Below, in pieces: positions 120 to 14,169 of a DNA stretch of 14,169 nucleotides. This DNA comes from Circinella umbellata (taxonomy: Eukaryota > Mucoromycota > Mucoromycetes > Mucorales > Lichtheimiaceae). The stretch lies in contig JAIWNF010000186.1 in assembly GCA_025093555.1 (NCBI GenBank), positions 1-14,169 on the forward strand, read 5' to 3'. Each line of letters starts with the position of its first letter. Position 1 is the stretch's first letter. The notes beneath the pieces are model-generated. The model made no database searches and was not told the DNA's origin. It worked only from the letters and a program-made list of their open reading frames with translations. Both the position numbers and the translations under genes were made by a program.

Positions 120-839
120 CTATTGGTCGTCTCTGACCAATGCAAGAGCATTGGAGGGAACAGAATCATAAAAGGCGCGTGTAGCAGCATGTGCAGCAAC
201 TGGGTCGAACCAAGGAGACTGAGGTGTAGACTGGCTATGGATAGGGCGCAAACGATCTGTATGAACCCAAGGTCCGTATTCTTTGCTATGAAGATCCTGG
301 AGCTTGTAGGTATCATGATCTAAATGATGATCTAAAACGACATAAGGACCCTTCCAGTTATATTCAAGACTGAGTTTTTGTTCATAGCGCATAAGAATAT
401 GATCCCCAACAGAAAAAATTTGGTGTTTCAAAGTAGCATCCCAAATGGCTTTGTCTCTTTCGGCATTAGCGCGTAAACGTTCAATAGCATTGGCACGAGC
501 TTCACGTAAACGGATCAAATCTGATTTGCGAGCATTGACCATCTCATCGAAATCGTGTGGTTCATCTATTGTTTGATTAACCAGCGGAGTTAGAGTATCA
601 CCAGGTAAACGAGGTTCAACACCATACACCATAAAATAAGGGCTAAGGCCAGTGGTCCGATGCTTGCGAATATTGCTTGAAAAAGTGGATTGCATTAAAA
701 AATCATCCCAGCGATGTATTTCACCATTTACATACTTGCGAATCATTTGCTTGAGTATAAAATTGCTTCTTTCAACCTTACTATTTGAACGGGGATGAAA
801 AGCAGAAGTAGCTTTATGATGTATTTTGACACGACCTAA
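120..839 (-). pseudogene. Ty3/gypsy pol, 3' fragment (integrase core end, GPY module, C-terminus)
   Basis: This is the downstream half of the interrupted pol frame. The open frame runs on to 887, but its first 16 codons come from the inserted repeat; native sequence begins with the TTA codon at 837-839 and LGRVK. The stretch FHPRSNSKVERSN carries the third catalytic residue of integrase (the E of VER), followed by the usual helix-rich segment and a basic, charged linker. A GPY-type module (NWKGPYVV) lies near open-frame residues 177-184. After that come DRLRPIH and a proline/serine-containing tail without a chromodomain. The frame ends at TAG, complement of 120-122, directly before the polypurine tract. 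Cut from its first half, it has no start of its own and cannot encode a working integrase. Confidence 0.9.
837..839. other. target-site duplication TAA, left copy
   Basis: TAA directly abuts the left end of the nested element (GAGAAA starts at 840) and is repeated directly after its right end. A 3-bp TAA/TTA duplication is characteristic of PIF/Harbinger insertions. On the minus strand it is the TTA leucine codon of the interrupted integrase. Confidence 0.85.
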
Positions 840-1184
840 GAGAAATGTTTTAAATGAAGATAAAATAAAAATATTTTTTATAAGCATAAAAATAAAAATT
901 ATATTGAAAATTTATAAAATATCAAAAAAATTGCAAATAATAAAAATATTGAAATAAATAAATAAATTTGTAATAAAATCTATATTAAAAATATAAAATA
1001 TAATTATATATCTTATTAAAAAGAAAAATATATCATAATATATAATGTTAATATAATTGCTATTAAAAGGATTTTAAATATATAGTATAAATCGAACAAT
1101 CTACAAAATATAGATAATAATCAGAAAATATAAATATGATTAAAAATGAGATTCATTGATTTTAAATTAACTAAAATGTTTCTC
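840..1184 (+). repeat. left terminal direct repeat (345 bp)
   Basis: Starts GAGAAATGTT and ends AATGTTTCTC. By visual comparison it is identical over its whole length to 2672-3016, at a constant offset of 1,832. My hand count gives 40 G or C in 345 bases (about 12%). The repeat itself has short inverted ends, so each copy also looks like a small MITE. It ends 42 bp before the transposase ATG, so it probably contains the promoter. Confidence 0.9.
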
Positions 1185-1226
1185 ATATTTAACAAAAAGT
1201 GAATTCTCTTATATATGTAAAAAATA

Positions 1227-2663
1227 ATGGATGCTACGATTAAACTTCAAAAAGAATATGAAAATTTAATAAAGTCAACTTGGGATTTTCTAAATAATGA
1301 ATATAATCCTATCAAAAAAAGAAATTATCACAGAACAGAATTACAAGAAATCAAATTAATTAATAAAATGAAAGATGAAATTTATAATAGATTAGGAGAG
1401 TTACCAATGTTTATTTTTATTACTGATTTCTGTAATAATTTTAATATACCAGGACCTTATAATGATATTGATAAGGCTATTGTGATAGTGTATCATTTAA
1501 TAATTGGTATATCTATCAATCAAATGGAAACATACTTGAATTATACAAATTTTTTTAGAATGTATAAATATATTTTTATTACAAAATATGATGAGCTAAA
1601 TAATTGGATAGATAAGATAATTTATAAATGCTCTTCAAATAAAAATATTAGGCTATTATCTGCATATATCAATAATCCTGATTTAGTAAAACATATTACT
1701 TTAATATTAGATGGACATCACAATAAGATTATTTATGAAAATGTGACTGTTGATCAAAAAACATTATATTCTTGGAAATTAAAATCACCTGGTCTAAACA
1801 CACAATTTATAATAGATACCAATAATATTGTTGTATATATATCAGATAGCTTACCTTGCAAGGATAATAATGATGATAAAATGTTAATTAATAATGTAAA
1901 CTTTAATAAATTTTTTACAATATATGATAATTTATGTTTTGATGGTCTATATTTAAATACATTACATGAAACAATAGCAAAATATTCATTAAGGAATATT
2001 GATATAGATGAATCAAATTTTACTTTTCCAATTAATAAAAAGAAGAAAATAAAACTTCAAAAAGATGAAGAGGAATTAAATAAATATATAGGAGGATTTA
2101 GATCAAAAATTGAAACTTATTTTGCTTATATTGGTAAAAAATTCAATAGATTTGATGCCAAGAATAAAATCCGTGTTACAAAATTAGAAACATATAATAT
2201 ACAATTAAGATTTTGTTGTGCATTATTAAATATTAAAAAGATTGTAGATATTACAAAGCTGAATATGTTACCAAAATATTCAAAATGGATGGAAAAGGGG
2301 TTTAATTATCCTAATAAAAATAATATAATTTGTAAATCTGAAACAGTACTATTTAAATTCAATAATATGAATATTATGAAAAATCGACAATTAGATACCC
2401 TATCTGCTTTATTAAATGATATTAATATAGATGAAAATATGGATTTCACCAACAACAATAATATAATCAATTGTAATGACGAATTAAATTATGAAGTTCA
2501 GTATATATATAATCATAGAATAAATGAAAAAAATCAAAAGGAATATTTAGTAAAATGGAAGGGATATAATAAAAAGTATAATTCTTGGGTCAATGAAAAA
2601 AACTTTGTAGAAACTGAAATAATTGATTTATATAATAAAGATTTAATGGATGAAGATATCTAG
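1227..2663 (+). CDS. DDE transposase (PIF/Harbinger/IS5-like) with C-terminal chromodomain
   Basis: A 478-residue protein, expected to catalyse cut-and-paste transposition in the nucleus. Residues 1-130 are helix-rich, with a helix-turn-helix-like stretch near 75-125. The catalytic domain spans about 155-335. LILDGHHNKI (159-168) carries the first Asp (D162). YSWKLKSPGLNTQFIID (181-197), followed by IVVYISDSLPCKDNNDD, matches the DDE_Tnp_4 pattern of a KK.p..NvQ strand, a G-like turn and a pGs..D loop. FDGLYL supplies the probable second Asp (D239, less likely D234). FRSKIETYFAYIGKKFNRF (291-309) matches the R..VE..fg.lK.rF helix and gives E296. A chromodomain lies at about 420-475: YEVQYIYNHR, then EYLVKWKGYNKKYNSW, with candidate cage aromatics Y422, W444 and W454. 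The ATG has A at -3 and G at +4. The frame is intact and stops at TAG, 8 bp before the right repeat. Codons are strongly A/T-ending. The superfamily is assigned by motif reading; the chromodomain is the surer of the two calls. Confidence 0.85.
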   Translation: MDATIKLQKEYENLIKSTWDFLNNEYNPIKKRNYHRTELQEIKLINKMKDEIYNRLGELPMFIFITDFCNNFNIPGPYNDIDKAIVIVYHLIIGISINQMETYLNYTNFFRMYKYIFITKYDELNNWIDKIIYKCSSNKNIRLLSAYINNPDLVKHITLILDGHHNKIIYENVTVDQKTLYSWKLKSPGLNTQFIIDTNNIVVYISDSLPCKDNNDDKMLINNVNFNKFFTIYDNLCFDGLYLNTLHETIAKYSLRNIDIDESNFTFPINKKKKIKLQKDEEELNKYIGGFRSKIETYFAYIGKKFNRFDAKNKIRVTKLETYNIQLRFCCALLNIKKIVDITKLNMLPKYSKWMEKGFNYPNKNNIICKSETVLFKFNNMNIMKNRQLDTLSALLNDINIDENMDFTNNNNIINCNDELNYEVQYIYNHRINEKNQKEYLVKWKGYNKKYNSWVNEKNFVETEIIDLYNKDLMDEDI

Positions 2664-2671
2664 ATTTCTAT

Positions 2672-3016
2672 GAGAAATGTTTTAAATGAAGATAAAATAA
2701 AAATATTTTTTATAAGCATAAAAATAAAAATTATATTGAAAATTTATAAAATATCAAAAAAATTGCAAATAATAAAAATATTGAAATAAATAAATAAATT
2801 TGTAATAAAATCTATATTAAAAATATAAAATATAATTATATATCTTATTAAAAAGAAAAATATATCATAATATATAATGTTAATATAATTGCTATTAAAA
2901 GGATTTTAAATATATAGTATAAATCGAACAATCTACAAAATATAGATAATAATCAGAAAATATAAATATGATTAAAAATGAGATTCATTGATTTTAAATT
3001 AACTAAAATGTTTCTC
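2672..3016 (+). repeat. right terminal direct repeat (345 bp)
   Basis: Same orientation as 840-1184 and, by visual comparison, without a mismatch. It starts 8 bp after the transposase stop codon, so it would provide the 3' untranslated region and poly(A) signal, as a 3' LTR does. On the minus strand its last 18 bases extend the interrupted pol frame to a stop. Confidence 0.9.
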
Positions 3017-3019
3017 TAA
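3017..3019. other. target-site duplication TAA, right copy
   Basis: TAA follows the last base of the right direct repeat (TTTCTC, ending at 3016) and matches 837-839. With one of the two copies removed, the retrotransposon frame reads straight through, which independently confirms the 3-bp size. Confidence 0.85.
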
Positions 3020-4858: not shown

Positions 4859-4862
4859 TCTT

Positions 4863-4910
4863 CATCTCATCCGACATCCGCTCATCCAATCCGATGATCC
4901 AGTCATCCGA
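4863..4910. repeat. degenerate CATCCG/TCATCC simple repeat at the truncated retrotransposon end
   Basis: Several spaced copies of (T)CATCC(G)A occur here; on the minus strand they read as GGATGA/GGATGT/CGGATG. They start within a few bases of where pol similarity stops, so this is probably the breakpoint or a filler sequence. In one minus-strand frame the repeat reads as acidic residues (SDD, DERMSDEM); I take this as a by-product. Confidence 0.55.
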
Positions 4911-5374
4911 AAGATTGAAAGTGCTTAATAGGTTTTTTTTATAGGTGTTTATAAAAAAAACATAAAAATATTGGATTGAAAAAGTGTGCCGCATTTTAAT
5001 GTAAGTGTAGCAAGTCAATAAATGTGACAAATATTATTTTATCAACTCAAAGATTCATCAAACTTTTTAGATCTAAACTTTTTGAAATGATCTAATCCCA
5101 AAGATGTTGAAATGTTATTACTTGATCCCTATTCATTATATTTCTTATAACATATTATTCCTCAAATTATTTATGTCACAACGTTTCCTATATTATTTCA
5201 TAATAATACTAATATTTGTCCCTTTCCAAAACGAAGAATAGCAAATAAAAAAAATAACCATTGTTGAAGAAGACGTCTAGAATAGTTTATTTGATATTTG
5301 TATTACCATAGTGATATATGTAATATAATTATAAACCCCAATACTCTCTCTATTTTGTACATTCTAAATGTTCA

Positions 5375-8371: not shown

Positions 8372-8465
8372 GGGAATAACTTCGGGCACGCCAAAAATTG
8401 ATAGTCAGATGAGGGGCGCGCCAATTCTGAGCCAGCACTTTAGTAACATGGCGCGCCCTTCGTCT
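8372..8465 (+). repeat. left inverted repeat with two GGCGCGCC palindromes
   Basis: Begins GGGAATAAC and ends CCCTTCGTCT. GGCGCGCC lies at 8415-8422 and 8450-8457. The last 45 bp match the reverse complement of 9675-9719 at 39 positions, with the final 26 identical. It is about 32 bp longer than its partner, apparently through an extra copy of the outer GGC.CGCCAA segment. Confidence 0.7.
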
Positions 8466-9674: not shown

Positions 9675-9736
9675 AGACGAAGGGCGCGCCATGTTACTAA
9701 GATGCCTGTTCAAAATTGGCGCCTGTAGTCATTCCC
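9675..9736 (-). repeat. right inverted repeat with one GGCGCGCC palindrome
   Basis: Inverted partner of 8372-8465, with GGCGCGCC at 9683-9690. Its second palindrome is reduced to GGCGCC (9718-9723). It is markedly GC-richer than the surrounding DNA. The minus-strand frame that overlaps it (9697-9990) is not gene-like. Confidence 0.7.
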
Positions 9737-12603: not shown

Positions 12604-13789
12604 TTATTTTTCTTGAAGCTCCTGATCAAGTGTCAATTGACGATATATGACTAATCCTGTATATTTAATCTTGCCATCAATCCGTTTTACTTTCTTAGGA
12701 GAAGACTTCATGTTGTCGAATTCGTACACATCTCCATTAGGAATTGTGCACATGGCTTTAAAGTGAAAACCAGTCGATCTAGTAGCTAATACACGTCTAC
12801 AGAGCTGATATTCGGCTTTTTCAATTTTAATTTTCAATGGGTAATAAGTTATACTTCTTCATAGCTCCCCATGTTTCTCTCGCCATTCTACACCATGCCC
12901 CTGGGATCTGTCTACCACAATAATGAATTTAGCATACTCAACAATCTGGCGTTGCATAAGTAGCGAATCATCAAGTGAAACTTTGCAGTCCATAATGCTT
13001 TCCTCTAACAGTCCACCCAAATTTACTAATCGCCAATCGCCTAAATCTTCTTCAACAAAATTCTCATCGTTCAAATAAAACATGGCTCGTTTTGTTCTGA
13101 TCTTGTTTGATTTTTGAGTATCTTCTGTTATCCATGCTTTTAATTCATTTTTTGTAGGAGCTGAGATTTTATAGACTTCAGCTTTCATGTGAAACTAAAA
13201 GTGTCCAAGAAATGAATGGATACAGCGAGGGTCAAGAATACATTCACAGACATCTAGTGGGTCGCCAAAGAATCCTCTCTCTCTTACTCCGTATTTTCCT
13301 TCATTATCCCATATAAACTCCCGTGCTGACAATATACCACTTGTAAAGTCATGCTTCTGTACAGCTTTCCAAAGGTTAGCAAAAAGCTGAGCTCTTGGGT
13401 CATCGTCGATTCTAGGAGGCTCAGGAATATAGGGCATAACTGATTTTGATATAATATTGAAGATACAATCAGTAGAACAAGCGTTTTCTCTATTTGGAAC
13501 AATATTACGTGGATAATCAACCTCAGGCTGATCATTAACAGATCTACATAATAATGGGTCAGTAAGAATTATTAAACAGATGTAGTGCCTTCTTTTAATC
13601 TACATACATTATTTTTGCTTGCTTTTTGTCTTGATACTCTTGCTTCTTTTCCTTTTGAAATTGATCACGGACCTCAGACTGTCTCATTGCACGGGCTTCA
13701 CGTGCATCAATAATCGTAGTCGTGTCTTCTTCTTTATCGGGGCTGTTTTCATGTTGATGATTTTCTACTGTATAGGATTTTGCATTCAT
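12604..13789 (-). pseudogene. ubiquitin-specific protease-like (C19/UCH) gene with one intron and two in-frame stops
   Basis: Exon 1 is 13789-13608 (charged N-terminus, MNAKSYTV... to KKQAKI). Exon 2 is 13543-12604, after a 64-bp intron. The joined frame would be 373 residues, which is small for a USP. The Cys box is PNRENACSTDCIFNII (residues 77-92, catalytic C83), compared with the family's N.GN.C..ns.lQ. GDPLDVCECIL (154-164) resembles the QQDA.EF motif. IVEYAKFIIVVDR and the later ITYYPLKIKI resemble the core strands before the His box. The His box is GFHFKA, with H321 and D337/N338 in YEFDN, followed by GLVIYRQL, compared with GHY...DD...YiLfY. Stops lie at TAG 13195-13197 (codon 177) and TGA 12859-12861 (codon 289). 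A 57-bp GTCTGT...TTTTAG segment could remove the first as an intron, with weak signals and loss of the second motif. For the second I see no good intron. Deubiquitinase activity is inferred from motifs. The ATG sits 21 bp from the repeat array; an in-frame TGA lies just upstream. Confidence 0.62.
13544..13607 (-). other. 64-bp spliceosomal intron in the protease-like gene
   Basis: On the minus strand it starts GTATGT, has TACTGAC as a near-consensus branch site 15 bp before the end, and ends TTATGTAG. Removing it joins the ATAAT end of exon 1 to ATCTGTTAAT and keeps the frame into the Cys box. Size and signals fit fungal introns. Confidence 0.75.
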
Positions 13790-13810
13790 TTCTGGACACA
13801 ACCTTCAATT

Positions 13811-13943
13811 TTTTCGCTTATAAGAGTAATTTTTTTCGCTTATGATGTTGATTTTTTTCGCTTATGATATGCTATGTTTTTTGCTTATGATGGCGGTGCT
13901 TTTCGCTTATGATAGCATTAATTTTCACTTATGATATATGATA
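13811..13943 (+). repeat. left arm: six units of a 22-bp tandem repeat
   Basis: Units start at 13811, 13833, 13855, 13878, 13900 and 13922, spaced 22, 22, 23, 22 and 22 bp. Each has a conserved 14-base core, TTTTCGCTTATGAT (some with C to T or G to A changes), and a variable 8-9-base tail. A degenerate seventh unit may begin at 13944 (TTCGTTTATC). The array starts directly upstream of the protease-like gene and would cover its promoter. Confidence 0.9.
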
Positions 13944-14147
13944 CTTCGTTTATCCCGTAAAAGCAGATGCAGCAAATATTAAAGAAAAATTGGTATTAGT
14001 CATGAAAAACTCCCCCTATCATTTATGTAAATCTCTTGGACCTCATAAGTAAGAAATTATATAGGTATTACAAGCGAAAATTAATGCTATTATAAGCAAA
14101 AAACACCGCCATCATAAGCGAAAAACATAGCATATCATAAGTGAAAA
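13855..14147. mobile_element. foldback-like inverted duplication with a 115-bp loop
   Basis: Left units 3-6 (13855-13943) pair with the inverted units 14059-14147 around a spacer at 13944-14058 without a gene. Inverted ends built of short tandem repeats are the hallmark of foldback (FB-type) elements known from Drosophila and other eukaryotes. Whether this is a mobile element, a rearranged minisatellite or two elements head to head cannot be decided from one partial copy. Confidence 0.55.
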
Positions 14148-14169
14148 ACACTGCCATCATAAGCGAAAA
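14059..14169 (-). repeat. right arm: five inverted units of the same 22-bp repeat, cut by the window edge
   Basis: Units end at 14080, 14102, 14124, 14147 and 14169, again spaced 22-23 bp, in the opposite orientation to the left arm. Read on the minus strand, the tails ATGCTATGT, GGCGGTGT and AGCATTAA occur in the same order as in left units 3, 4 and 5. Pairwise matches are 22/23, 20/22 and 20/22. The array continues beyond the window. Confidence 0.9.

What the first reader, a model, noticed from the sequence alone, without database searches (positions are those of the whole stretch)
840..3016. DNA transposon with LTR-like 345-bp direct terminal repeats
Cut-and-paste elements normally end in inverted repeats. 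This one, with a DDE_Tnp_4-type transposase and a TAA duplication typical of PIF/Harbinger, is bounded by two long direct repeats that I read as identical. The ORF starts 42 bp after the left repeat and ends 8 bp before the right one, just as in an LTR element, yet there is no RT, integrase, primer site or polypurine tract. Short inverted termini remain at the outer edges. I do not know of a described superfamily with this architecture; that is a statement about my knowledge, not a search result.
Basis: partly seen in the sequence, partly recalled or inferred. Interest (0 to 1): 0.9.

Follow-up and report, generated by a model that had tools for sequence, protein, structure and literature searches.

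The report
Fungal transposon with LTR-like direct repeats
This jumping gene, in a genome that is likely fungal, has two identical 345-letter direct repeats at its ends, each shaped like a miniature transposon; our literature searches found this layout only in the animal family KolobokP, and it would likely let the element move whole or leave a lone repeat behind.

Summary
Window 840-1184 and 2672-3016 are identical 345-bp direct repeats (R), flanked by TAA/TAA, around one 478-aa gene: a DDE_Tnp_4 transposase ending in a chromodomain. It is not a one-off misassembly: four more elements in this genome share the plan with other repeat sequences (two with R of 201 bp, one of 361 bp, one decayed). 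Four of the five have matching 3-bp duplications (TAA, ATT, CTT, ACT), and empty sites were found for three. R carries imperfect inverted ends on both sides, so it is itself transposon-shaped. Solo R copies exist in two related families: three with TTT/TTT, and one at a site whose duplicate holds R-gene-R. Direct-repeat transposases fall in one strongly supported clade; relatives without repeats lie outside. R cannot be aligned between the families compared, yet is near-identical within elements, so the pair is likely homogenised. The claim that no such architecture is described is wrong: KolobokP (Kojima and Bao 2022) has it, in another transposase superfamily and with a homing endonuclease. 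This is a second, apparently independent lineage without that enzyme. How the repeats are kept identical is inferred, not shown.

The parts
837..839 (.). left 3-bp target-site duplication, TAA
   Evidence: the flanks meet with a 3-base spacer in uninterrupted Ty3-type copies on C42 and C113
840..1184 (+). left long terminal direct repeat (R), 345 bp
   Evidence: identical to 2672-3016
840..852 (+). left-end inverted motif GAGAAATGTTTTA of left R
   Evidence: 10 of the first 12 bases match the reverse complement of the other end of R
1172..1184 (-). right-end inverted motif (TAAAATGTTTCTC) of left R (inner)
1185..2671 (+). internal region (INT), 1487 bp
1227..2663 (+). transposase ORF, 478 aa, without internal stop
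   Evidence: dN 0.39 against dS 0.91 in comparison with the L006 transposase
1710..2231 (+). DDE_Tnp_4 catalytic domain (residues 162-335); putative triad D162, D239, E296
2490..2639 (+). C-terminal chromodomain (residues 422-471)
2672..3016 (+). right long terminal direct repeat (R), 345 bp
2672..2684 (+). left-end inverted motif of right R (inner)
3004..3016 (-). right-end inverted motif of right R (outer end of the element)
3017..3019 (.). right 3-bp target-site duplication, TAA
3020..4858 (-). host of the insertion: Ty3-type pol reading frame, cut within the integrase region (its other piece is about 120-836)
   Evidence: the naming as Ty3-type is by recall of motifs; observed only
4970..4972 (.). 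ATT inside an interspersed repeat: the empty-site counterpart of the L006 insertion
   Evidence: the two L006 flanks overlap here by exactly 3 bp

Best explanation
This is a composite-like DNA transposon, two identical 345-bp direct repeats around one DDE transposase gene, that inserted as one unit with a 3-bp target duplication, and each repeat would be a small transposon in its own right because it carries an end motif on both sides. The chromodomain transposase likely acts on the outermost GAG/CTC ends to move R-INT-R, and could also act on the two ends of one R. Recombination between the two R copies likely produces solo R copies and, as the reciprocal product, a circle with a single R plus INT. 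The two R copies are likely made identical again by recombination or by integration from a single-R intermediate. Shown here: unit insertion, empty sites, ends on both sides of R, solo R copies in related families, one pair of duplicated sites with R and with R-INT-R, and within-element identity. Inferred: which ends the transposase uses, the circle, and the homogenising step.
For: Unit insertion: L006 (TSD ATT) and L007 (CTT) sit in interspersed repeats whose uninterrupted copies show one site; the window insertion lies in a frame that is uninterrupted in related copies on C42 and C113. L008 has R of 361 bp and ACT on both outer sides, its left R split by about 2.7 kb of foreign DNA. Ends of R: 8 to 11 of 12 terminal bases inverted-match in window R, L006 R, L008 R and three solo copies. 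Solo R with TTT/TTT at C79, C142 and C192. C157 carries one R where the duplicated stretch on C189 carries R-INT-R, with about 170 bp and 120 bp of near-identical flanks. Homogenisation: R pairs differ at 0 of 345 (window), 0 of 201 (L007) and 1 of 201 bases (L006), whereas R does not align between window, L006 and L017 better than shuffles, at transposase dS 0.91 between window and L006. Clade: the 4 direct-repeat rows of this genome fall on one side of a 100/100 branch, the 21 rows without them on the other.
Against: No circle or transposition has been observed. No solo copy was found for the window family or the L006/L007 family, so mobility of R alone is not shown for this very element. 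Solo R with duplications can arise by recombination alone. No tandem (R-INT)n-R array was seen. The order of events at C189/C157 is unclear: R-R divergence (3 changes in about 190 bp plus a 32-bp gap) lies between the near-flank identity of about 99.8% and 96% further out. Of the five direct-repeat elements only window, L006 and L007 have frames without a stop; L008 has one stop and L017 four. The C206 copy of R lacks its 5' part and has no matching flanks. Independent origins of R in each family are not excluded.
Confidence: 0.8

Rival explanations
1. Ordinary cut-and-paste element whose two R copies stay identical only through gene conversion by the host; the direct repeats and the inner ends play no part in transposition. 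(It overlaps with the best explanation on homogenisation and differs on the role of R, so the two odds do not exclude each other.)
For: Close identical repeats convert readily (established knowledge). Relatives without repeats have short inverted ends alone (L009: GGAGGACATT ends, TSD AAT, the one candidate in a scan).
Against: The architecture is kept across a clade whose members differ at about half of their residues, while R turns over; a feature without a role would be expected to be lost at times. Both inner ends of R keep the GAG/CTC motif, though where R copies are identical the inner ends simply follow the outer ones.
Confidence: 0.35
2. LTR retroelement or its derivative that captured a transposase gene.
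For: Long direct repeats and ORF spacing look like an LTR element.
Against: The only ATG-started ORF of 50 aa or more is the transposase. R ends in GAG...CTC, not TG...CA; INT does not begin with TGG; duplications are 3 bp. The same transposase type carries the repeats in all five cases.
Confidence: 0.02
3. Misassembly or a chance local duplication at this one site.
For: The window is one whole 14-kb contig.
Against: Four other elements on other contigs (C69, C21, C1, C189) have the same plan with different repeat sequences, three of them with their own target duplications.
Confidence: 0.02
4. Two separate miniature elements (MITEs) happened to insert on either side of a transposase gene.
For: R is transposon-shaped and solo R copies exist in the L008 family.
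Against: No target duplication at the inner edges, one duplication around the whole. It recurs in five elements; window R and L006/L007 R were found nowhere else in this genome.
Confidence: 0.04

Closest known systems
KolobokP (Kojima and Bao 2022, PMC9587614; animals of 7 phyla)
   Same: R-INT-R plan with long terminal direct repeats that have their own short inverted termini; solo repeats with target duplications; a transposase inside INT.
   Different: Other transposase type: KolobokP belongs to Kolobok (C/DxxH motif, CCHC finger); here DDE_Tnp_4 plus chromodomain, 0 of 41 rows with C/DxxH or CCHC by pattern. No His-Me nuclease ORF here. Window and L006/L007 elements are 2.1-2.2 kb against 4.0-4.7 kb for autonomous oyster families. 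R 201-361 bp against about 450 or 660 bp. No tandem arrays seen here.
PIF/Harbinger and the wider PHIS superfamily (PMC4482050, passages seen)
   Same: DDE transposase of the DDE_Tnp_4 kind (that PHIS falls under this Pfam model is recalled), 3-bp duplications, short imperfect inverted termini beginning with G.
   Different: Duplications not confined to TWA; no second (Myb/SANT) ORF; chromodomain in the transposase; long direct repeats.
IS26 translocatable unit and the IS2-like megacircle of Burkholderia thailandensis (PMC6350997, abstract seen)
   Same: Direct repeats at both ends; for the megacircle, a circular form holding one repeat plus the middle is reported.
   Different: Bacterial; the transposase lies inside the repeat, not between the repeats; no circle has been shown here.
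LTR retrotransposons
   Same: Long direct repeats identical in young copies; solo repeats (recalled).
   Different: No reverse transcriptase or integrase gene in the element; different ends and duplications.

Membership tests
[quoted passage not shown]
KolobokP | each direct repeat has its own short terminal inverted repeats | tested here: met
   8-11 of 12 bases, imperfect
KolobokP | Kolobok transposase with C/DxxH motif and CCHC zinc finger | tested here: not met
   0 of 41 aligned transposases by pattern; Pfam DDE_Tnp_4 in 41 of 41
KolobokP | His-Me finger homing endonuclease gene (not seen in some members, per the paper) | tested here: not met
   single ATG-started ORF of 50 aa or more in the 2177-bp element; for the exception
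KolobokP | solo repeats with target duplications | tested here: met
   three solo R with TTT/TTT, in the related L008 family; none for the window family
KolobokP | tandem arrays (R-INT)n-R | tested here: inconclusive
   none seen, but only five elements are available
PIF/Harbinger group as defined in PMC4482050 | TSD 5'-TWA-3' | tested here: not met
   direct-repeat elements: TAA, ATT, CTT, ACT; solo R: TTT three times
PIF/Harbinger group as defined in PMC4482050 | most autonomous elements have a second ORF with a Myb/SANT domain | tested here: not met
PIF/Harbinger group as defined in PMC4482050 | short terminal inverted repeats beginning with A or G | tested here: met
   GAG ends, imperfect
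PHIS superfamily | transposase alignable with PHIS transposases over the catalytic region | tested here: inconclusive
   Pfam DDE_Tnp_4 match above cut-off (41 of 41 rows at E up to 0.01); no direct alignment with named PHIS transposases was made
LTR retrotransposon | reverse transcriptase and integrase genes | tested here: not met
bacterial composite transposon | transposase encoded within the terminal repeat | tested here: not met
   the ORF lies between the repeats

The most novel reading that the evidence does not exclude
A second, independent superfamily of DNA transposons has evolved LTR-like paired ends, and it remakes them at every jump from a single repeat: a circle holding one R plus INT would be nicked by the transposase at the 3' ends of both termini of that one R, giving a linear with complementary R-long 3' overhangs; strand transfer and gap filling would then yield R-INT-R with two identical repeats and a 3-bp duplication. 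That would be an LTR-like duplication cycle without reverse transcription and without a homing endonuclease.
Probability: 0.2. Interest if true: 0.85.

Novelty: new variant of a known kind. Interest (0 to 1): 0.62.

Why it matters
[quoted passage not shown] A second lineage, with another transposase and no such enzyme, indicates that the plan can arise and persist without it, and points to the shared feature, a repeat bearing both transposon ends, as what needs explaining. The element is small, and copies with open frames, decayed copies, empty sites and solo repeats occur side by side in one 50.8-Mb genome, so the mechanism can be tested. It also warns annotators that a pair of identical direct repeats need not mean a retroelement.

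Tried and rejected
Rejected: misassembly, retroelement origin, chance MITE pair (see rivals). L003 and L004, weak matches to window R, are AT-rich simple sequence. Flanking direct repeats at L023 (86% and 68%) are read as a neighbouring tandem partial copy of the same non-repeat family; L026, 99.6% identical to L023 over 2316 bp, shows none, so I did not count L023. Weak pairs at L048 (73%) and L056 (68%) were not counted; L048 is AT-rich with no end motif; another part of L056 proved to be the split left repeat of L008. I first read the L008 repeat as 48 bp; one search showed 361 bp. I first believed there were no solo copies; searches corrected this for two other families. In one search the row L054_R reads 3 of 12 because my cut began one base early; I dropped that row. 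The same script printed TCT/CCT for L007 because of a shifted cut; CTT is read. An attempt to use divergence to tell which state came first at C189/C157 was dropped as ambiguous. Searches of viral contigs and genome contigs found no relative. Foldseek showed chromodomains in the 50 rows listed; no PIF/Harbinger structure appears in the list, which excludes nothing. Contig lengths of the 77 database homologues (63 of 77 between 1.6 and 2.6 kb) were not used as evidence, since short-read assembly would give the same for many repeats.

Full report
Observation. Two 345-bp direct repeats, 840-1184 and 2672-3016, are identical. They bound a 1487-bp internal region with one ORF, 1227-2663, 478 aa; no other ATG-started ORF of 50 aa or more exists on either strand of the 2177-bp element. 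TAA stands on both outer sides; the inner sides (ATA, TAT) do not match. The window is the whole of contig C97 of a 50.8-Mb, 210-contig assembly.

Other copies in the genome. The transposase search gave 94 match rows. Five elements have flanking direct repeats: the window, L006 on C69, L007 on C21, L008 on C1 and L017 on C189. L006 and L007 differ at 2 of 2111 bp; their R is 201 bp, identical between the two R copies of L007 and different at one base, the first, in L006. L008, first seen as a 48-bp repeat, has a right R of 361 bp; its left R is in two pieces that together match query positions 1-48 and 47-360, 2.7 kb of foreign DNA apart, with ACT on both outer sides and A for G as first base of the left R. 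L017 is decayed: its frame holds four stops, the start of its left R is missing, and its right R holds a palindromic stretch of about 320 bp; where both copies exist they differ at 3 of about 190 bases and by one 32-bp gap. No other locus was counted; L023, L048 and L056 are discussed under rejected items.

Insertion as a unit. For L006, the left flank aligns to window 4882-4972 (75%, with gaps) and the right flank to 4970-5162 (96%), overlapping by ATT, an empty site of the same interspersed repeat; of 39 further places listed for that repeat, 36 match from the first base after R (a capped list). For L007, copies on C178 and C57 show the uninterrupted sequence; the two flanks overlap there by CTT plus a G that could belong to the target or to the element. 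For the window, related Ty3-type copies on C42 and C113 align to both flanks with a 3-base spacer; these copies are diverged (68-78%) and C42 has CAG there. So R-INT-R goes in as one piece with a 3-bp duplication.

The repeat as a unit. R begins GAG and ends CTC; 8-11 of the 12 terminal bases are inverted-repeat matches in window R, L006 R, L008 R and three solo copies. A 361-bp query of L008 R gave 13 rows: its own right R; two rows for the split left R; C142, C79 and C192, which are solo copies with TTT on both sides; C19, the right R of a 5'-truncated element (L054); C206, lacking its 5' part and without matching flanks; and five partial rows not fetched. The L017 R gave three rows: its two R copies and C157, where flanks of L017 surround one R only (about 170 bp left, 120 bp right; 99.8% over the left match; the first 31 bases fetched from C157 do not align). 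A stretch 1.2 kb beyond the element on C189 matches C157 at 96%, 7.2 kb beyond its R, so the two contigs share a larger duplicated or allelic stretch with further differences. Which state is older cannot be told. Window R and L006/L007 R were not found outside their elements, within the stated limits of that search.

Clade and homogenisation. In a tree of 88 transposases rooted at the midpoint, the four direct-repeat rows and 59 database relatives lie on one side of a 100/100 branch, the 21 rows of this genome without direct repeats and four further database rows on the other; L009 is a long branch whose place is flagged as unsure. The direct-repeat rows fall in three of the four subclades (20, 6 and 26 rows; none in the 11-row one); some of the deeper forks are weak. 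L017 was too broken for the tree, and no DNA was available for the 59 database relatives. R sequences of window, L006 and L017 do not align better than shuffles (the lowest count was 13 of 200 shuffles, for window against L017 left; L008 was not in this test), whereas R pairs within elements are identical or nearly so. If the architecture is ancestral to the clade, the two R copies must have been kept alike while R as a whole turned over. Independent gains in each family remain possible.

Relatives without repeats. L009 has ends GGAGGACATT and AAT duplications, the one candidate of a scan; others have GAGG-, GGGG- or GGCG-like ends with TAT, CTT, TTA, TAA, CTG and ATA (read by eye). So the direct-repeat plan arose, or was lost, within a set of ordinary short-terminus elements with 3-bp duplications.

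Mechanism. Shown: unit insertion, two-sided ends on R, solo R in related families, and same-site R versus R-INT-R. Inferred: the transposase uses the outer ends; R-R recombination makes solo R and a single-R circle; the pair is restored by recombination or, in the boldest reading, by nicking both 3' ends of the one R in such a circle, which leaves R-long overhangs that are copied into two identical repeats.

Known systems. KolobokP has the same plan, with solo repeats, tandem arrays and a His-Me nuclease (PMC9587614: abstract, passages, sections 5, 8, 9, 10 and the first of two parts of section 13 read). Its authors propose unequal crossover and a circle recombining with a solo repeat. The Kolobok signatures are absent here by pattern. 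The PIF/Harbinger definition (PMC4482050, passages) is not met for TWA and the Myb ORF. For the bacterial megacircle I saw the abstract and outline only (PMC6350997). Literature searches showed no other DNA transposon of this plan in their listings (titles and starts of abstracts); only open-licence papers are held, and Repbase was not available.

Noticed in passing
window 13788-14169: Array of about 22-bp repeats (TTTTTCGCTTATGATR) present in both orientations: arms 13833-13936 and 14066-14169 are 88% complementary, at the contig end.
   Followed up: no
window 8418-8465 and 9675-9722: 48-nt inverted repeats, 88% complementary, 1209 nt apart: possible ends of another DNA element.
   Followed up: no
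window about 4862-5162: Interspersed repeat next to the Ty3-type frame; the L006 target is another copy, and 40 places are listed for part of it.
   Followed up: partly
L010 and L011 (C198): Two identical non-repeat transposase elements in inverted orientation, with 335-bp inverted repeats between them.
   Followed up: no
L029 / L058 (C57): Palindromic pair of transposase copies, 76% identical over about 1.78 kb.
   Followed up: no
L006:1095, and L056 at the first base of the left R of L008: In both elements the first base of the left R reads A where the right R has G.
   Followed up: no
L008 R and its relatives: Inside R lies an end-like palindrome: CTTTTCTC, TAA, GAGAAAA, resembling a right end and a left end joined by a 3-bp spacer; also seen, with small changes, in C79, C142, C192, C206 and C19.
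   Followed up: no
L006 and L017, just before the right R: Both carry a shared stretch ending in CTTGACTTTTTCTC about 20 bp before the right R, possibly an older right end.
   Followed up: no
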